A DNA stretch of 64,000 nt from Coffea arabica (Eukaryota; Streptophyta; Magnoliopsida; Gentianales; Rubiaceae). Positions 3,003 through 21,224 of this stretch are shown piece by piece. Every line of letters starts with the position of its first letter. The stretch's first letter is position 1. Location of the stretch: NCBI RefSeq assembly GCF_036785885.1, contig NC_092323.1, positions 8,130,501 to 8,194,500 of the forward strand, given 5' to 3'. Below the pieces are notes generated by a model. It worked only from the letters and a program-made list of their open reading frames with translations, ran no database searches and was not told the DNA's origin. Both the position numbers and the translations under genes were made by a program.

Positions 3003-3026
3003 GCCTAGACTAGGCATGGCCACGGT

Positions 3027-3195
3027 TCCACTTGGAACCGGGAACCGGACCGGAACCGAACCGTTTGGAACCGGACCAGAACCGGAATCAGAACCGTGGA
3101 ACCAGAACCGTAGTAGAACCATGGATAAAGGTTCCGGTTCTGGTTCTCTAAAAAAATAGAACCAGAACCAGAACCGCCGGTTCCAGAACCGTTAA
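3027..3195. repeat. Left subterminal GGAACC array of the hAT element
   Basis: The block holds over a dozen GGAACC, GAACCG and AGAACC hexamers in both orientations, just inside the left inverted repeat. In studied hAT elements, short subterminal repeats of this kind are the binding sites of the BED zinc finger of the transposase. That role here is inferred from position. Confidence 0.8.
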
Positions 3196-3526
3196 AAAAT
3201 TTAAAAATAATTAATATAAAAAATAATAAAAGTAGAGACATCATGATGACCTTGGTCATCATGATGCCACCACAATTTTTGCTCTCAAATTTTGCTCTTG
3301 GGGCTCCTCCTGACTTGCACAAAGGTCCTCAGGCTCTCAACGGAAGAAAGAAACAAAGCAAAGGATAGAAAAAAAACAAGAAAGGTGGCTGCCTGCTAAA
3401 TTTGACAAATTGGCAAGTTTACAACGTTACAATTCAACGTTGTAATTTTGTCCAAACTTTCAATACAACGTTACAAATTTGAAACGTTACAATACAACGT
3501 TCCAAATTTTTAATTTCATTTTGTCC

Positions 3527-3534
3527 TATAAATA
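3527..3534 (+). promoter_or_regulatory. TATA box of the hAT transposase gene (putative)
   Basis: TATAAATA lies about 240 bp upstream of the transposase ATG. It is followed by a T/C-rich leader and preceded by a cluster of about six ACGTT motifs (3421-3502), several in the form AACGTTAC. Position fits a core promoter internal to the element. Confidence 0.45.
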
Positions 3535-3772
3535 AGACTTGAAATTTTATTTTCTACTACACCAAAATCAATCTTCTCTTTTCCATCTCTAAACTACTCT
3601 CAATTTCTTCATCTATTTCCTAATTTTTTCACTTTTATTCTATTTTGCTCCTGTTCACTTATTTATATATTTTACTAATTACTTAATTCTTTTTATTCAT
3701 CTAATATCTATCATTATAATTTGTAAGTATTAAATTATTACTTACAATTTTTTTTTGCTTATTTGCTATCAA

Positions 3773-5872
3773 ATGGCAAGTTTTGATGGCAGTAGCTCAT
3801 CTTCAAAATCAAGTAAGCAAAATATTCCTTCAAATGAAGTCTTCAACTTTGATGATTGTCCAACTCAAGAAAGTCAGCATATGACAACCATCCTTGAAGA
3901 TCAAACAATTGAAGCCGAGGAAAGAAGTGGAAGCAAAACTCCTAAATCTGAAATCTTCACAAAGCACTTCACCAAAGAAATTGACGTCAATGGCAAAAGT
4001 CAAGCAAAGTGCAATTATTGTCCAAAAAGTTATCAATACAAAATGGGAGATGGCTATGGAAAGTATCACAAGCATTTGAGAAAGTTTCATCCTCAAGAAT
4101 TGGGCATCGACAACAAACAAACACAAATTACCGGGTTTGCTACTTCTAACCTTTCTCTATTTCGATTTAGTGAAGAAAGACATAGGAATGAATTAGCAAA
4201 AATGATAGCTATTGAACATTTATCTTTTAGTTTTGGAGAAAAGTTGGGTTTTAAGAAATATTGTCAAAATTCTTTAAATCCTCAATTTAAAAATGTTCCT
4301 AGAACCACTCTTAGACGAACACTTAAAAATATTTATAATCAAGGAAAAAAAGAGTTAATTCAATTATTCTCAAATTTAGATAGTCGTGTATCTATATGTT
4401 CCGATATTTGGAGTGACCATTGGCAAGTACATTCTTATATGGCCATAACTTGTCATTGGATTGATAATGAGTGGAATATACAAAAAAGAGTGCTAGCTTT
4501 TCGTATTTTTGATGAATCTCACAATGCTCTAAACATTTTTAAAATGATTAGTATTATTTTGGGAGAATATGGTCTATGTAAAAAAGTTTTTTCAATTGGT
4601 TTTGATAATGCATCCGCAAATACCGCTTCTATTGGAGAGTTGCGAGATCTTTGCCAACCTGGATTATGTGGTAAATTTTTTCATATTAGATGTGCATGCC
4701 ATATTTTAAATTTAGCCGTACAAGATGGTTTACGAGCACTTGAAAATCATATAAAACCTATTAGAAAAGCAATTTCTTATTTATGGGCACACCCTAAATT
4801 AATGAAAAAGTGGAGCACTTTTTGTAAAGTCAATGGAAAAAATCCAAAAAGATTTTCAAGAGATGTTCCTACTCGTTGGAATTCAACATTTGAATTACTC
4901 AAAGAATCACACAATTATAGTGAATTATTAATTGCATTCTTTGCAACTAACATGACCGAAATATTGTTGCATGAAAATAATTGGATTGTTTGTAATAAAA
5001 TTTTAGAAATTTTATCAGTTTTTAATGATGCTACTTATACTTTGTCTGGTGTATATTATCCTACTACTCATTTATTCCTTACCGAGGCGTGTAATATTGT
5101 TGGTTGTCTAAATGAAGCTAAAAATGATGATTTTCTGAAGCAACCTATTAGGGAAATGTTTAGGAAATGGACTAACTATTATGAACATATTCCACATATA
5201 TATTTAGTTGCTTCTGTTTTTGATCCTCGTGTTAGATTAGATGGTTTGCATGAGTATTTGTCATCATATTATGAACAAATATATAGTAGCGAAAATTATG
5301 CCCACGATGTTAGTAAAAAAGTGTTTGAAGTTAAAGAGCTTATTTGTTCTTTATATAATGAATTTTTTATTACTTATGGTGATCGATTTCCTACTAGTAT
5401 TTTGGAACCCTCTAGTAACACTGATAATAGTCTTAAAAGGGCTGTCAAGATTGGTGATAGAATACTTCTTGAAAGGTCAAAACGACAAAAGGGTTCACCT
5501 AATACTAATACGGAACTCGAATCATATCTAACTACCAAGTTTGAGCATGATGATAGCAGCTTAACTAAACAGTTTAAAGTCCTTGACTGGTGGAAGCGAA
5601 AATCAGAGAATTATCCTATCCTCTCCCTTATTGCTAAGCAAATTTTAGCAACTCCAGCATCAACAGTAGCAGTGGAACAAGCTTTTAGTGCCGGTGGAAG
5701 CATTTTGGATGAGACAAGATCGAGATTAAGCCCAGAATCACTAGAAATTCAAGCATGCGTGGATGATTGGACTAGATCAGAATATAGACAACAAGAAATG
5801 GAAAAAAATGAAGAAGAAGAATTCAATTATACAACTGATTCTAGTGCCGTCGCAAGCAATGAAGATGATTAA
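3773..5872 (+). CDS. hAT-family transposase, BED zinc finger, RICESLEEPER-like
   Basis: The 699-aa protein would cut and paste the surrounding element in the nucleus. The first ATG in frame is at 3773; the frame remains open upstream only to a non-ATG codon. A BED-type zinc finger lies at about residues 62-107, with C80, C83, H101 and H106. The catalytic core follows and includes SDIWSD and GFDNASANTASI, which are regions typical of the RNase H-like fold. The C-terminal hATC dimerisation domain is at about 600-666 and contains LDWWK, TPASTVAVEQAFSAGG and RSRLSPE. There is no frameshift or stop. Length and domain order match plant hAT transposases of the RICESLEEPER/DAYSLEEPER kind. Placement between matching inverted repeats argues for a working transposase gene and against a domesticated one. 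AT-rich codon use differs from the neighbouring host genes. Confidence 0.95.
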   Translation: MASFDGSSSSSKSSKQNIPSNEVFNFDDCPTQESQHMTTILEDQTIEAEERSGSKTPKSEIFTKHFTKEIDVNGKSQAKCNYCPKSYQYKMGDGYGKYHKHLRKFHPQELGIDNKQTQITGFATSNLSLFRFSEERHRNELAKMIAIEHLSFSFGEKLGFKKYCQNSLNPQFKNVPRTTLRRTLKNIYNQGKKELIQLFSNLDSRVSICSDIWSDHWQVHSYMAITCHWIDNEWNIQKRVLAFRIFDESHNALNIFKMISIILGEYGLCKKVFSIGFDNASANTASIGELRDLCQPGLCGKFFHIRCACHILNLAVQDGLRALENHIKPIRKAISYLWAHPKLMKKWSTFCKVNGKNPKRFSRDVPTRWNSTFELLKESHNYSELLIAFFATNMTEILLHENNWIVCNKILEILSVFNDATYTLSGVYYPTTHLFLTEACNIVGCLNEAKNDDFLKQPIREMFRKWTNYYEHIPHIYLVASVFDPRVRLDGLHEYLSSYYEQIYSSENYAHDVSKKVFEVKELICSLYNEFFITYGDRFPTSILEPSSNTDNSLKRAVKIGDRILLERSKRQKGSPNTNTELESYLTTKFEHDDSSLTKQFKVLDWWKRKSENYPILSLIAKQILATPASTVAVEQAFSAGGSILDETRSRLSPESLEIQACVDDWTRSEYRQQEMEKNEEEEFNYTTDSSAVASNEDD

Positions 5873-6167
5873 ATAATTAATGTTTGTTTTGATATTTCAT
5901 CTCAATTTCAATGAAAAAATCAAATATTTTCTTTTCCATTTAAAATGATTACCATTTGATAGTGTAATGTAATTTGACAATGTAATGTACTTTTCATAAA
6001 ATTTGTATTATCTATTTATTATTTCGTACTTTGTAGAATAATAATAAAATTAAAATATAATATTTATTTTGTATTTTTTTTTACATTTTATTTAAAATTT
6101 TAAATATATTGTTATATTTGTATTAAAATTGGTAAGGATAAGAAATTAAATAAAATTGCATATAACC

Positions 6168-6350
6168 ATACGGAACCGGAACCGGAACCGGAACCAGAAC
6201 CATAAGGAATCGAAATCAGAACTATGCGGTTCTGGTTCTACCTTTTTGAAGAACCAGAACCGCCGGTTCTGGAACCAGAACCAGAACCATCTTATATGGT
6301 GCGGTTCTGGTTCTACCTCTTTGAAGAACCAGAACCGTTGGTTCTGGAAC
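6168..6350. repeat. Right subterminal GGAACC/GGTTCT array of the hAT element
   Basis: GGAACC, AGAACC and their complements GGTTCT/GGTTCC are repeated across this block, just inside the right inverted repeat. It mirrors the left array at 3027-3195. The first part is a near-perfect run of GGAACC hexamers. Confidence 0.8.
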
Positions 6351-6873
6351 CGTGGCCATGCCTAGCCTAGACTCATCGAACTTCGTCGTTTTGTCCATTT
6401 TTCCCCTTTGAACTTGGTGATTATTAGATATAGTACCAATATTTTACAAAAAAATTGGTTTTTGTTTTCATTGAAGGTTAATGAATTCATTACTTTTCTA
6501 TCAACAAATAAAAAGGGTTCATTTTCAATTTGGCCGGTTGCCACCACAGGGGATATTTCAAGATCCGCACTTGATGAACAGACTACTGCATATTGCTATT
6601 TCAAGGTCAAGCCCCACAAGTTCTTGGTTGTTTTGTTGTGTAAATTGAAACGATAGACCAGATGACTTCAGTAATCAATAGCTTTAGCAAGTATCAAAAG
6701 AACTGATCATGATTCCCAACTTGAATGAGGGTTCAAATGTGAAAGTAACATGTTAAGCCCACACACGCGATCAATGGTTATGTTTGTTTATCAAGGCACG
6801 CCCCAAATCTATGATGGATCACAAGCAAGATTAAGACCTAACTGACCTTTCAGGATGAGACTAATAATACTAA

Positions 6874-7665: not shown

Positions 7666-8243
7666 TAAGCAGAAATATAAAAGTACCTGAAAATGAGTAT
7701 AGAGCGCACGAAAGTAACTGTTAACCATTTTTTTAAGTGTAAATCGGAGGTATTGAATTCGGGAACTCTCCGTGGAACTCCCTGACTTGAGAGTATTTTA
7801 AGCAACTGATTTTAGAGCATCAAACACAGATTTAAGTGTCTCAGAAATTCCAAAAAGAAAATAGAAAAATAAGAAAATAAAGGGAATATTCACGTACTTT
7901 GACGACTTCATGAAAACGGAAGTACTCGCACGTGTCAAACGCAGCAGTAAAGCCAGGTGTTCAAAACGACGGCAGTCATGGTAAAACATAGTAGCAGAGG
8001 CAGCCACATTTTCAATAAAGTGAGGGAACGAGGGATGCCCCTCGTGAGCAATCTGCCAACCCCCCATCCCCACCCCTACCCCTCTAGCCAAAACCGCTTC
8101 TTCAACTCCTTCATTCGTCATCCACCTTTTCACACTCAATCCTATTCTCGTCTAGTCTAGTTTTCCTCTTCAAATAATACTACTACTAGAGAATATATAG
8201 GAGGCAAACGGGTGGAGGAAGAATCAAGAAAGAAAATAGTAAC
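7666..8243 (+). promoter_or_regulatory. Upstream region and leader of the BES1/BZR1-like gene
   Basis: This stretch precedes the BEH2-like ATG and has no ORF of its own. It contains a GCACGTGTC motif near 7928 and a pyrimidine-rich leader with CTC/TTC runs around 8090-8180. An AATATATAGG motif lies near 8193, about 50 bp before the ATG. ACGTG motifs are known sites for BZR-type, bZIP and bHLH factors. Their use here is inference. Confidence 0.35.
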
Positions 8244-9961
8244 ATGACAGCTGCCGGCGGTGGGTCATCATCGGGGAGGTTACCCACTTGGAAAGAAAGA
8301 GAGAATAATAAGAGAAGAGAAAGAAGGAGAAGAGCCATAGCTGCCAAGATTTTTTCTGGCTTACGAGCTCAGGGCAACTATAAGCTTCCTAAACACTGTG
8401 ATAATAACGAAGTCTTGAAAGCTCTCTGTTCTGAGGCTGGTTGGATTGTTGAAGACGATGGAACTACCTATCGCAAGGTAAATGACACTATTTATTTTTA
8501 CAAATTTCTCGGCTTCAGATCTGTATCCATGCGTATTTATGTTTTCTTCTTTTTCCTCAACTACAATAGACTGGGATGTTCATGTAATATTGCTATTTTC
8601 TTGGTTATGAGAATATCGCAAGTATCGATTTTGATGTATACTGCGGAGAAATTCCGATAATCTTTGAAGGTTAATTTTTGTCCTGCTAGTATGATTATAA
8701 TTGTTTGCTGTTTGGCTGGGATCCCAGTGGGGGGTTTGATCCGTGAAATTACTTGTTGACCCGGCAAAATTTTTTCTCTACTAGTTGGTTCTTAATTTAC
8801 TGGTTTTTAGCTTCATAAGATAACCTGCGTAGTTGTAAAACTGGGTTTGAGTTCCAAATAACTTTTTATTTTTTTCAATTTTAGTGTAGGCTGTAAGGTG
8901 TTCATGATTCCCATAAATGACTGAGCGTTCAACTTCATAACTTCAACTGCCATTTGCGTTGAATTGTTTTCTGTCCAAATGGTCTTCTTTTCCTGCTTTC
9001 CTGAACTTAAGCAAATCTGCATTTTGTTTTTGCTCTTTATTAGTCCTGTTTTAGATTTCTTTCTTTCCTTTAATTGTTCGACATTTTTCTTTTGGTAATT
9101 AGTGTGATCAAGAGATTAGTGCACTCCTGAAAGAGATGGTTTGAAGCACTTTTTTTCCCATTGCCTTATAGGCTAGTCAGATGGTATTCAAAATTTCAAC
9201 TCATTCAAATGCTAATGTTCGCAATGATCTGATTTACACAGGGAGGGAAACCACCCCTGGTCGAGTTAACAGGTGCTTCAGCTAGTATCAGTGCATGTTC
9301 ATCTATCCAAATAAGCCCAGCATCCTCTTCCTTTCCTAGTCCTGCACCTTCTTACCATGCCAGTCCTGGGTCATCCTCGTTTCCCAGCCCCTCTCGTGGC
9401 GATACAAACCCCCCATCTTACATTCTTCCTTTCCTCCACAATTTAGCTTCCATTCCCAACTCCCTACCTCCTCTACGTATATCCAACAGTGCCCCTGTAA
9501 CCCCTCCTCTTTCTTCCCCAACTAGAGGTTCAAAGCGTAAACCTGATTGGGAGCCTCTTTCTCATATCAAATTACCGCCTTCATTGCCGCACTCTCTTTT
9601 TGCTGCTTCAGCACCATCGAGTCCTACACGACGTCAGCATTTCACGCCTGCCACAATTCCAGAATGCGATGAGTCTGATATATCCCCAGTCGAGTCTGCT
9701 CGCTGGGTGAGTTTCCAGACAGCCCCAGCTGCTCCATCTTCACCCACATTCAACCTTGTGAAACCTGCCACTCTGCAAAATCATCAGGATGTAGTCGATG
9801 GTCGTGGACAGTTTCCCTGGGGTGCAGGGGCACAAAGGGGATGTGGCTCTGAATTTGCATTTGAGAGTTGCACAGTGAAGGCATGGGAAGGTGAAAGAGC
9901 ACATGAAATTGGGGTGGATGACTTAGAGCTCACCCTGGGGAGTGGAAAGGCCCATGGTTAA
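8244..9961 (+). CDS. BEH2: BES1/BZR1 homolog, BEH2-like brassinosteroid transcription factor
   Basis: Exon 1 is 8244-8477 and exon 2 is 9242-9961, joined across a 764-bp GT-AG intron after the AAG of TYRK. The protein is 317 aa. The family binds E-boxes and BR-response elements in the nucleus and is controlled by BIN2-type kinases in brassinosteroid signalling. The N-terminal DNA-binding domain is at about residues 12-90 ([20 protein letters not shown], then [16 protein letters not shown] and EDDGTTYRK). A Ser/Thr/Pro-rich middle ([30 protein letters not shown]) offers many S/T-x-x-x-S/T GSK3 sites. ECDESD marks the PEST-like region. LELTL at 306-310 is an EAR repression motif. The short glycine-rich start and [12 protein letters not shown] favour BEH2 over BZR1 or BES1. 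The intron position after the DNA-binding helix region is the family's usual one. Confidence 0.95.
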
Positions 9962-12572: not shown

Positions 12573-12587
12573 GTTTTCACAGAATCC

Positions 12588-14000
12588 ATGGATAACGCAA
12601 AGCTCCATGTGGCTATTGTCTCAAGCCCCGGCATGGGCCATGTCATCCCGGTCCTTGTTCTAGGCAACCGCCTCGCCACCGTCCATGGCGTGCGAGTCAC
12701 CATACTAGTCATCACAACAAGCAATTCCGATGAAGAGTGTCGATTCCTCAAAACGTTGACCTTGTCAACACTTGTCCGTGTTATAGCTTTGCCCCCAGTA
12801 GATATCTCCGCCAAAATTACTCCAGCAACTGCTGCTGTCACACAGCTATGCATGTCCGTCCGTGAAGCTTTACCAATCATCAGGTCAAGTATTGCTTCGA
12901 TGAACTGCTGCCCAGATGCCCTCATCCTCGACCTGTTTTGCCCCTCGGCCATACCCATTGCCCGGGAGTTCAACTTGCCCGTTTACGCATACGCTCCCAC
13001 AAATGCATGGTCTACCACTCTCTTCATGTACATCCAAGTTCTTGATAAGGAAATAGAGGGTCAATATGTTGAGCAAAAAGAGCCCTTGAGGATCCCGGGT
13101 TGTAAATCGGTTCGACCGGAGGATGTGGTTGATCCGATGTTGGACCGGAACGATCAGCAATACCATGACTACATTGAGCTAGGGATTGGGCTTACAAGGT
13201 CTGATGGTATTCTGGTCAACACTTGGGAAGATTTGGAGCCTACAACGCTCAAAGCCTTGAGAGAAAACGAAACCTTGAAGCCAGCAGTTAAGGTATCGGT
13301 TTACCCAATTGGTCCATTGACGAGACCGGTTGAACCATCTAGTTTGAAGAGCAAAGTGTTGGAGTGGTTGGACGAGCAACCTGTTGATTCGGTAATCTAT
13401 GTATCTTTTGGGAGTGGTGGAGTTCTTTCAGCTGACCAGATCAAGGAACTAGCTTTTGGGTTGGAGCTGAGCCAGCAAAGGTTTATTTGGGTGGTTCGAC
13501 TACCCTTAGATGGTGGTTTGAGCAAATCAGATGATCCCTTAGATTACTTGCCTGATGGGTTTCTAAACCGAACCAAAAATGTGGGGTTTGTAGTCCCGCT
13601 GTGGGCTCAACAAGTGGAAATACTGGGCCATCCATCCGTCGGGGGATTCTTGTCTCACTGCGGATGGAACTCCACTTTGGAGAGCATAAGCGCCGGCGTA
13701 CCAATGATTGCATGGCCACTTTATGCTGAGCAGAAACTGAATGCAGCCATGTTAACCGAGGATCTCGGCGTGGCGGTCCGGCCAGAGGTGTTGGCAACCA
13801 AGAAAATGGTGGAGAGGGCAGAGGTTGAGAAAATGGTGAGAATGGTAATGCAACAGAAAGAAGGCCAGGAGATGAGACAAAAGATGAAACAACTCAAGTC
13901 AAGCGCAGATGATGGTCTAAGCAATCGAGGGTCGTCGTTTAGTTCGATGTATAATGTCCTTGATGAAATACGATTAAATTCTCGCAATCAGAATCATTGA
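12588..14000 (+). CDS. UDP-glycosyltransferase, UGT72 family (intact)
   Basis: The 470-aa, intronless protein is a family 1 glycosyltransferase. Such enzymes move glucose from UDP-glucose to small phenolic or hormone-like acceptors in the cytosol. The catalytic His is H18 in SSPGMGHVIPV and its partner Asp is D115 in LILDLF. The 44-residue PSPG sugar-donor box runs from about 339 to 382 (WAQQVEILGHPSVGGFLSHC...GWNSTLESISAGVPMIAWPL...AEQ). IPGCKSVRPEDVVDPMLDRN and VYPIGPLTRP place it in UGT72, near the monolignol/hydroquinone and anthocyanidin 3-O-glucosyltransferase 5-like groups. The acceptor cannot be told from sequence. It is the first of three copies on this strand. Arabidopsis UGT72C1 sits at the same place in the conserved block. 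Confidence 0.93.
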   Translation: MDNAKLHVAIVSSPGMGHVIPVLVLGNRLATVHGVRVTILVITTSNSDEECRFLKTLTLSTLVRVIALPPVDISAKITPATAAVTQLCMSVREALPIIRSSIASMNCCPDALILDLFCPSAIPIAREFNLPVYAYAPTNAWSTTLFMYIQVLDKEIEGQYVEQKEPLRIPGCKSVRPEDVVDPMLDRNDQQYHDYIELGIGLTRSDGILVNTWEDLEPTTLKALRENETLKPAVKVSVYPIGPLTRPVEPSSLKSKVLEWLDEQPVDSVIYVSFGSGGVLSADQIKELAFGLELSQQRFIWVVRLPLDGGLSKSDDPLDYLPDGFLNRTKNVGFVVPLWAQQVEILGHPSVGGFLSHCGWNSTLESISAGVPMIAWPLYAEQKLNAAMLTEDLGVAVRPEVLATKKMVERAEVEKMVRMVMQQKEGQEMRQKMKQLKSSADDGLSNRGSSFSSMYNVLDEIRLNSRNQNH

Positions 14001-19739: not shown

Positions 19740-19796
19740 GGCTGGAACCTTTCTTTTTTCCCTTGTAGCTGTTGGCGTTCACAATACGACTAGCCA

Positions 19797-21224
19797 ATGT
19801 ATAGCCAAAAGCTTCACGTTGCCATTCTCTCAAGCCCCGGTTTGGGTCATCTCATCCCTGTTCTTGTGCTGGGAAACAGGCTAGCAACCCATCATGCTGT
19901 TAAAGTTACAGTACTGGTCCTCACAACCAGCACTTCACCAGCAGAGTCTCAACTGCTCAAGCCCCCTTCCGGTCCAAAAGTAGTGGACACAATTAACATT
20001 CCCCCGGTGGACATCTCTCACCTAATTGATGCCAACACTAGGGTGGTCACACAATTATGCATCATGGTACGTGAGTCTCTACCGGGTGTTCGGTCCACAA
20101 TCGCGGGCATGAAGCACCGGCCGAACGTCCTAATTGCGGACCTCTTCTGCACGGAAGCCTTTCCGATTGCAACTGAATTTAACATTCCCAAGTATTTGTA
20201 CATTCCCACCACTGCATGGTTTACCGCATTAACTTCGTATTGCCCGGTGCTTCATGAACAAATAGATGGTCAGTATGTTGATCAAAGTGAGCCGCTCCAA
20301 ATCCCCGGTTGCAAACCGGTCCGGCCGGAGGACGTGGTTGACCCCATGCTAGACCGGAACGACCCGCAGTACAGGGAGTACTTGAGGCAAGCGATGGAGT
20401 TCCAGCTGGGAGACGGGATCTTGATGAACACTTGGGAAGAGCTAGAGCCCGTATCGCTTGAAGCGTTGAGGAGAAATGAATCTTTACGGGCAGTTGTGAA
20501 GCCACCGGTTTATCCCATCGGACCGCTAACAAGACCGATCGAGCTGGCCGGTCCAAAGAGTGAGTTGATCGAATGGCTAGACAAGCAGCCACATGAGTCG
20601 GTGATATTTGTCTGTTTCGGAAGCGGTGGCACTCTATCAGCTCAGCAAATTACAGAGCTAGCTTGGGGTTTGGAGTTGAGCCAACAGAGGTTTATATGGG
20701 TGGTTCGACCACCAGCAGAAAATGGTGCGGATGAGTCGTTTTTCACATCGGGGAGCGCTTCTGATGGCACCCCGGATTATTTACCAGAAGGGTTCCTCAG
20801 CCGAACGAAGAAGACGGGTTGGGTTGTACCCTTGTGGGCCCAACAACCGGAGATCTTGAATCATCCGTCAGTTGGGGGATTTCTGTCGCATTGCGGATGG
20901 AACTCAGCGGTAGAATGCATCAAAAGTGGTGTTCCAATGATTGCATGGCCGCTTTATGCGGAGCAAAGACTGAACGCCACCATGCTAACGGAGGAACTCG
21001 GGATAGCGGTCCGGCCGGAGATTTTACCAGCTAAGAAAGTTGTGGACAGAGAAGAGATTGAGAAATTGGTGAGAACTGTGATGGAGTACAAAGAAGGAAA
21101 GGTCATGAGGGATAAAGTTAAAAAACTGAAGAATAGTGCTGAGAATGCACTGAACAAGGGGGGATCCTCTTACGATACCATGTGCAATCTCCTGAGAGAT
21201 ATTCAGATGAGGTTGAGGTTTTGA
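19797..21224 (+). CDS. UDP-glycosyltransferase, UGT72 family (second intact copy)
   Basis: This 475-aa intronless enzyme shares the plan of the gene at 12588-14000 and probably uses UDP-glucose on phenolic acceptors in the cytosol. An in-frame TAG sits two codons before the ATG, which fixes the start. Catalytic H18 lies in SSPGLGHLIPV and D115 in LIADLF. The PSPG box spans about 347-390 (WAQQPEILNHPSVGGFLSHC...GWNSAVECIKSGVPMIAWPL...AEQ). IPGCKPVRPEDVVDPMLDRN marks the same UGT72 subgroup. A Ser/Gly/Asp-rich loop before the PSPG box (ADESFFTSGSASDGTPDY) is longer than in the first copy. GC content at third positions is higher than in the first copy. It is the last member of the array. The acceptor is unknown. 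Confidence 0.93.
   Translation: MYSQKLHVAILSSPGLGHLIPVLVLGNRLATHHAVKVTVLVLTTSTSPAESQLLKPPSGPKVVDTINIPPVDISHLIDANTRVVTQLCIMVRESLPGVRSTIAGMKHRPNVLIADLFCTEAFPIATEFNIPKYLYIPTTAWFTALTSYCPVLHEQIDGQYVDQSEPLQIPGCKPVRPEDVVDPMLDRNDPQYREYLRQAMEFQLGDGILMNTWEELEPVSLEALRRNESLRAVVKPPVYPIGPLTRPIELAGPKSELIEWLDKQPHESVIFVCFGSGGTLSAQQITELAWGLELSQQRFIWVVRPPAENGADESFFTSGSASDGTPDYLPEGFLSRTKKTGWVVPLWAQQPEILNHPSVGGFLSHCGWNSAVECIKSGVPMIAWPLYAEQRLNATMLTEELGIAVRPEILPAKKVVDREEIEKLVRTVMEYKEGKVMRDKVKKLKNSAENALNKGGSSYDTMCNLLRDIQMRLRF

What the first reader, a model, noticed from the sequence alone, without database searches (positions are those of the whole stretch)
3003..6372. Apparently complete, possibly active hAT transposon
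Perfect 20-bp TIRs, a perfect 8-bp target duplication, an unbroken 699-aa transposase and intact subterminal arrays occur together. Most hAT copies in plant genomes are broken, so this is a candidate source element.
Basis: partly seen in the sequence, partly recalled or inferred. Interest (0 to 1): 0.7.

Follow-up and report, generated by a model that had tools for sequence, protein, structure and literature searches.

The report
Recently mobile hAT transposon in coffee
This stretch is a complete "jumping gene" in what is almost certainly the Arabica coffee genome, one of at least 13 copies with an intact gene, nine of them almost letter-for-letter alike and spread over both parental halves of this hybrid species, so it jumped recently and may still be able to move.

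Summary
Confirmed: a 3,354-bp hAT element (3011-6364) with perfect 20-bp TIRs, a perfect 8-bp TSD, an open 699-aa transposase frame and GAACC/GGTTC arrays at both ends. The host genome is held (1.198 Gb, 131 contigs); size, homeologous pairs and N-methyltransferase genes point to allotetraploid Coffea arabica. At least 13 full-length copies have an open 699-aa frame and perfect, different TSDs. Nine, read in full, differ by 0-8 substitutions, and two are identical; the other four are about 98% alike. The homeologous site on C13 is unoccupied (95% identical). Near-identical copies lie on both members of homeologous pairs (C11/C12 full-length; C3/C4 and C7/C8 for a ~1-kb deletion derivative), so the family moved after the parental genomes merged, unless homeologous exchange carried it. 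At 1.3e-8 the nine have a mean pair age of ~33,000 years, against 350,000-610,000 published for the polyploidy; a slow rate weakens this. The window copy is probably not the source: it has three private substitutions (one G299C), a 1-bp insertion and a 21-bp loss. Present activity is not shown. An ordinary hAT; the interest is recent cross-subgenome DNA-transposon movement where LTR mobilisation was not found.

The parts
3003..3010 (.). left copy of the 8-bp target site duplication GCCTAGAC
   Evidence: the unoccupied homeologous site has a single GCCTGGAC
3011..3030 (+). left terminal inverted repeat, 20 bp
   Evidence: the same 20 letters in 9 of 9 copies read in full
3031..3192 (.). left subterminal array of GAACC/GGTTC-type repeats
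   Evidence: 19 motifs in 3011-3200
3527..3535 (+). TATAAATAA, possible TATA box of the transposase gene
   Evidence: letters; inference only
3773..5872 (+). transposase gene, 699 aa, one open frame; Dimer_Tnp_hAT at residues 581-666, hAT-like RNase-H match at 426-530, possible BED finger with C80, C83, H101, H106
4403..4405 (+). codon of Asp211, first acidic residue (CSDIWSD); aligned with a Hermes Asp
   Evidence: catalytic role of the Hermes residue recalled
4604..4606 (+). codon of Asp278, candidate second acidic residue (GFDNASAN)
   Evidence: by motif; in the alignment it lies two columns from the Hermes Asp, next to a gap; role recalled
4667..4669 (+). private missense codon of the window copy: TGT (Cys299) where the other 8 copies read in full have Gly
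5675..5677 (+). codon of Glu635 (ASTVAVEQAFS), third acidic residue; aligned with a Hermes Glu
   Evidence: role recalled
6170..6344 (.). right subterminal array; a 21-bp stretch is missing at about 6325 relative to 7 of the other 8 copies
6345..6364 (-). right terminal inverted repeat, 20 bp
6365..6372 (.). right copy of the target site duplication

Best explanation
The window holds a complete, autonomous-type hAT cut-and-paste transposon in Coffea arabica. Shown: the structure, the open transposase frame, at least 13 such copies with perfect TSDs, and near-identical copies on both members of homeologous chromosome pairs. Inferred: the transposase binds the GAACC/GGTTC arrays through an N-terminal BED-type finger and the TIRs through its core, excises the element and inserts it with an 8-bp stagger; copy number rises when excision is repaired from a sister copy or happens during replication, and array-length changes arise in that repair; the same enzyme moves the ~1-kb deletion derivatives in trans. 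The young group (nine copies read in full) spread within roughly the last 100,000 years at the rate used for coffee TEs, after the two parental genomes merged, and crossed between subgenomes; an older group of four (about 98%) came before it. Whether it still moves today is open.
For: 13 full-length copies with an open 699-aa frame, 99-100% aa identity (64 of 1446 candidates scored, so a lower bound), 98-100% in DNA (40 of 225 scored). 13 of 13 have perfect 8-bp TSDs, all different (9, 4); the flanks of the 9 copies read in full do not match between copies, so no segmental duplication among them. 36 pairs of these 9: 0-8 substitutions, mean 2.9 in 3.35 kb; C12_34.07, C15, C10, C14_7.32 have none among themselves, and C15 and C10 are identical in all letters. 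Homeologous empty site of the window copy on C13, 95%; on the partner chromosome also for C12_34.07, C22 and, part-length, C14_7.32. Pairing: C13/C14 (26), C11/C12 and C21/C22 (27, 74), C7/C8 (57, 59), C3/C4 (97% over 1.87 kb). Full-length copies on C11 and C12 differ by 5 substitutions. Derivative: 15 loci, 0-12 substitutions, zero between C3:55.5 and C4:33.4 or C4:47.0, one between C7:2.06 and C8:47.4. 19-nt TIR pattern with up to 2 mismatches: 214 forward, 204 reverse, control 0 and 0. Host: 1.198 Gb, 131 contigs against 1,198 Mb, 132 scaffolds, 22 pseudochromosomes in PMC11018527; N-methyltransferase match up to 99%, best PDB matches 2eg5 and 2efj (that these are coffee enzymes is recalled).
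Against: No expression, excision or polymorphism data. Dating depends on the rate: at 2.5e-9 (an assumed slow rate) a split at 350-610 ka predicts only 6-10 substitutions per pair, so the most different pairs (7-8) would fit that age. The four older copies (about 98%) fall outside the young group. 10 of 13 full copies are on even-numbered contigs, so most insertions could have happened inside one parental lineage; only the three on odd contigs (C11, C15, C19) need movement between subgenomes. Homeologous exchange is not excluded copy by copy. Four of 13 copies could not be read in full, so dN/dS was not measured. Of the 9 read copies, 4 have a partner-chromosome empty site, 3 lie in repeats, 1 gave no listed match and 1 was not tested. 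The diploid parents were not available.
Confidence: 0.85

Rival explanations
1. The burst took place in one diploid parent shortly before the merger, and the copies on the other subgenome were carried over later by homeologous exchange, not by transposition.
For: Copies are biased to even-numbered contigs: 10 of 13 full-length and 12 of 15 derivative loci, the latter a sample and not a census. Homeologous exchange is documented in Arabica and was offered by the genome paper as a possible reason for TE similarity between subgenomes (PMC11018527 section 6; PMC10805892 passages).
Against: A non-reciprocal exchange would leave the same insertion at the homeologous place on the partner. Among the listed matches the only full copy on C20 is at 12.9 Mb and in the older group, those on C12 are at 10.7 and 34.1 Mb, and C16 has only a partial older match, against C19:7.3, C11:6.1 and C15:12.2 Mb. 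Three independent exchanges would be needed for the full copies alone. A reciprocal exchange is not excluded by this.
Confidence: 0.15
2. The family is complete but dead: it burst some tens of thousands of years ago and is now silenced and fixed in all plants. (This can be true together with the best explanation.)
For: Five of the nine copies read in full carry substitutions relative to the commonest sequence, and the window copy has a missense and an array loss. Low TE expression overall in coffee (PMC3823963 passages).
Against: Four copies without substitutions among themselves, six of nine... five besides the window with one protein; 13 of 13 open frames; no step of the machinery is visibly broken.
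Confidence: 0.35
3. Copies were homogenised by gene conversion, so their identity says little about age.
For: Dispersed repeats can convert (general knowledge).
Against: The copies have unrelated flanks and each its own perfect TSD. Older related copies in the same genome stay at 91-94%. Conversion tracts were not tested for against the older copies.
Confidence: 0.04
4. A domesticated host gene of the hAT type rather than a transposon.
For: Plants have domesticated hAT genes (recalled: DAYSLEEPER).
Against: TIRs, TSDs, many copies, deletion derivatives, an empty site.
Confidence: 0.01

Closest known systems
hAT superfamily, Hermes transposase (PDB 2bw3, 4d1q, 6dww, 8edg)
   Same: aligned D and E of the catalytic core, C-terminal dimerisation region, 8-bp TSD, subterminal repeats, a possible N-terminal BED finger (PMC10368747 passages)
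   Different: host is a plant; similarity is confined to parts of the core and the C-terminal region; array motif GAACC/GGTTC, where the Hermes BED site is AAGT
Activator (Ac) of maize and other active plant hATs (Tam3, Tag1, nDart; all recalled)
   Same: autonomous plus internally deleted members, 8-bp TSD
Tip100-like hAT sequences reported in Coffea (PMC3823963)
   Same: hAT superfamily; a Tip100 cDNA probe gave 36 FISH sites in C. arabica, against signals on 8 chromosomes in C. eugenioides and 14 in C. canephora (passages)
   Different: the probe sequence is not held, so whether it is this family is unknown

Membership tests
hAT superfamily | 8-bp target site duplication | tested here: met
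   13 of 13 full-length copies, perfect
hAT superfamily | short terminal inverted repeats | tested here: met
   20 bp perfect in 9 of 9 young copies; at least one mismatch between the ends in 3 of 4 older copies, and in 15 of 15 derivatives of about 1 kb; the fourth older copy, C12_10.65, has one change in each end
hAT superfamily | hAT C-terminal dimerisation domain | tested here: met
   PF05699, 83.4 bits against a cut-off of 21.4
hAT superfamily | D-D-E residues in an RNase-H-like core | tested here: met
   D211 and E635 aligned with Hermes D and E; D278 by motif only, two columns off in that alignment; PF14372 hit; no fold was predicted
hAT superfamily | N-terminal BED zinc finger | tested here: inconclusive
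   zf-BED 14.8 bits, below its 20.6 cut-off, E=0.03, residues 65-107; C80, C83, H101, H106 present
hAT superfamily | subterminal repeats at both ends | tested here: met
   19 and 19 motifs in the ends, 3 in the middle
Ac group of hAT | target preference nTnnnnAn (recalled) | tested here: not met
   8 of 35 perfect TSDs fit; the strand-symmetrised preference is T at 3 and A at 6, 66% each
Buster group of hAT | target preference nnnTAnnn (recalled) | tested here: not met
   5 of 35, the window's own TSD among them
Ac, Buster or Tip group | place in the transposase tree | not testable with these tools
   no plant hAT reference proteins are held; PMC3942097 (passages) says that its authors had not investigated the target preference of the Tip group
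autonomous, active element | expression, excision, new insertions | not testable with these tools
   no RNA-seq, no second Arabica genome, no parents

The most novel reading that the evidence does not exclude
A DNA-transposon family was set moving after allopolyploidy in Arabica coffee, crossed between subgenomes and is still active, producing gene-disrupting insertions in a crop with little nucleotide diversity. It would be an unrecognised source of cultivar mutations, and an exception to the 'no genomic shock' picture drawn from LTR elements.
Probability: 0.35. Interest if true: 0.7.

Novelty: new member of a known kind. Interest (0 to 1): 0.5.

Why it matters
[quoted passage not shown] Another paper says that the very recent origin of the species does not allow one to tell whether some non-shared insertions came after the merger (PMC10805892 passages). 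A cut-and-paste family with near-identical copies on both members of homeologous pairs answers this for at least some insertions without a clock, subject to the homeologous-exchange rival, and offers 13 full-length and many short sites that can be genotyped.

Tried and rejected
Segmental duplication as the reason for identity: rejected, no flank of the nine copies matches another copy's flank. Rfam at gathering scores in the window: nothing. A homeologous-exchange patch at C21/C22, suspected from 99% over 300 bp: not supported, 93% over about 980 bp. The same at C7/C8, suspected from 100% over 200 bp: it is coding sequence, 98% over 1.5 kb. L049 and L050, with the same TSD letters: flanks unrelated. 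The first alignment was discarded because minus-strand copies had not been turned; one search replaces it.

Rows dropped or missing. Of the short elements, 5 of 31 were left out of the TSD count (four with one mismatch, one with no TSD), and 8 further loci had only one TIR within 2 mismatches and were not counted (L022, L028, L031, L034, L056, L057, L059, L066). The TSDs of the four older full copies are not in the 35. The 15 derivative loci are a sample: they come from the first 30 of 418 TIR places (C1-C7) and from places chosen. Empty sites: of 9 copies read in full, 4 have one on the partner chromosome (window, C12_34.07, C22, part-length C14_7.32); C10 and C19 lie in repeats of which other copies run across the junction at 77-88% and 81-84%, C15 in a repeat with 40 of 40 listed matches running across the junction; C2 gave no listed match; C11 was not tested. 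For C3:2.53 only the left flank was searched, so whether C4 is empty there is not known. Subgenome naming of odd and even contigs: hinted only by 5S rDNA, all 47 scored hits (of 44,184 candidates) on C22, against two loci on Chr11e and one on Chr11c in PMC10805892; left open.

Literature: 9 searches. No title or start of abstract in those listings names this element; a hAT probe in PMC3823963 could be the same family. Papers seen as passages: PMC10805892, PMC3823963, PMC13013560, PMC3942097, PMC10368747, PMC9366187 (PMC13013560 and PMC9366187 are not used here); PMC11018527 as passages and one whole section. All others: listings only.

Full report
Observation. The element is as described: TSD 3003-3010/6365-6372, TIRs 3011-3030/6345-6364, ORF 3773-5872 of 699 aa, dense GAACC/GGTTC arrays at both ends. 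It is not chance: the 19-nt TIR pattern has 0 expected matches in shuffled windows, and 200 shuffled elements gave open frames of at most 146 codons. The protein is a hAT transposase by Pfam and by sequence match to Hermes. D211 and E635 align with Hermes residues; D278 is proposed from its motif and is two columns off in that alignment (catalytic roles recalled). The BED finger is only suggested.

Host. The window is contig C14 of a 1.198-Gb genome in 131 contigs. PMC11018527 (passages, section 6) reports the C. arabica HiFi assembly of the di-haploid line ET-39 as 1,198 Mb, 132 scaffolds, 22 pseudochromosomes. Flank searches pair C13 with C14, C11 with C12 and C21 with C22, C7 with C8 and C3 with C4. 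I take the host to be C. arabica; no tool named it.

Copies. A protein search found 13 full-length copies with an open frame at 99-100% identity, one partial copy with a stop (C6) and many older, broken matches (64 of 1446 candidates scored). A DNA search found the same 13 at 98-100% (40 of 225 scored). The TIR pattern with up to 2 mismatches occurs 214 times forward and 204 reverse, control 0 and 0. All 13 have perfect, different TSDs. Nine could be read in full: 0-8 substitutions in 36 pairs, mean 2.9; four have none among themselves, two are identical in all letters.

The window copy in its family. It differs from the commonest sequence by three private substitutions (3088, 3289 and 4667, the last giving Cys299 for Gly), a 1-bp insertion at 3150 and a 21-bp loss in the 3' array. 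C12_34.07 also lost 21 bp at nearly the same place but kept the other repeat unit, so the two losses look independent. Of six indels among the nine copies, the four longer than 1 bp lie in the subterminal arrays, which fits slippage during gap repair (inference). The window copy is therefore more likely an offshoot than the source.

Derivatives. Fifteen sampled loci of 961-1007 bp keep roughly the first 620 and last 380 bp (one of them aligned, 95% and 97% to the full element) and differ among themselves by 0-12 substitutions. All 15 carry the left-TIR variant of the older full-length group, so they probably come from that lineage; recent movement of both suggests a shared transposase (inference). 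Among 31 distinct short elements with both TIRs, 26 have perfect TSDs, 4 have one mismatch and 1 has none. The 35 perfect TSDs counted (9 full, 26 short) are all different and prefer T at position 3 and A at position 6, 66% strand-symmetrised. This is neither of the two preferences I recall for the Ac and Buster groups, and PMC3942097 (passages) says that its authors had not investigated the third group, Tip.

Empty sites and timing. The window's site on C13 is unoccupied, 95% identical over 600 bp, with a single GCCTGGAC and no extra bases at the junction. Partner-chromosome empty sites were found for three further copies, one of them part-length. Collinear parts of the subgenomes average 94.9% identity (PMC10805892 passages), while full copies on C11 and C12 differ by 5 in about 3,353 bases, and derivative copies on C3 and C4 by none and on C7 and C8 by one. 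Such copies are too alike to descend from the common ancestor of the two parents, so the family moved between subgenomes after the merger or was carried by homeologous exchange. At the 1.3e-8 rate used in PMC11018527 the mean pair age of the nine is about 33,000 and the maximum about 92,000 years, and a pair dating from 350-610 ka would show 31-53 substitutions. At an assumed 2.5e-9 it would show 6-10, so the clock alone is not decisive.

What is not shown. No expression, excision, polymorphism or parental data could be reached. PMC3823963 (passages) reports more FISH sites of a Tip100-type hAT in Arabica than in either parent and reads this as increased transposition; whether that is this family is unknown. 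The finding is a well-preserved member of a known superfamily; its value is that it makes post-merger DNA-transposon movement in Arabica directly testable.

Noticed in passing
L037 513-1519 (C7:2,059,583-2,060,589): A 1007-bp derivative (TSD AGTAGAAC) interrupts coding sequence of a PDR-type ABC transporter gene (Pfam ABC2_membrane and PDR_CDR on 3 of 4 flanking frames searched); the homeologous site on C8 is unoccupied, 100% identical over 200 bp and 98% over 1.5 kb. It looks like a recent gene disruption.
   Followed up: partly
window 8190-9961: A BES1/BZR1 transcription factor gene (PF05687) begins about 1.9 kb beyond the element's right end, on the same strand; the homeologous site on C13 lacks the element, so a promoter effect could be tested.
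   Followed up: no
window 12573-14000 and 19794-21224: Two long open frames that look like related plant glycosyltransferases (by eye only, no search), a nearby gene pair.
   Followed up: no
L041 / G000:C15:12165306-12168679: This full-length copy sits inside a repeat that looks copia-like by eye; 40 of 40 listed genomic matches run across the junction uninterrupted.
   Followed up: partly
G000, even- against odd-numbered contigs: Even-numbered contigs carry 10 of 13 full copies and 12 of 15 sampled derivatives (nominal binomial p 0.004 for 22 of 28; the derivatives are not a census), but only 56 of 99 listed perfect TIR sites (counted by hand): young copies may come from one parental lineage.
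   Followed up: partly
G000 C22, 32.8 and 39.7-40.4 Mb: Clusters of 5S rRNA genes; all 47 scored hits of 44,184 candidates are on C22.
   Followed up: no
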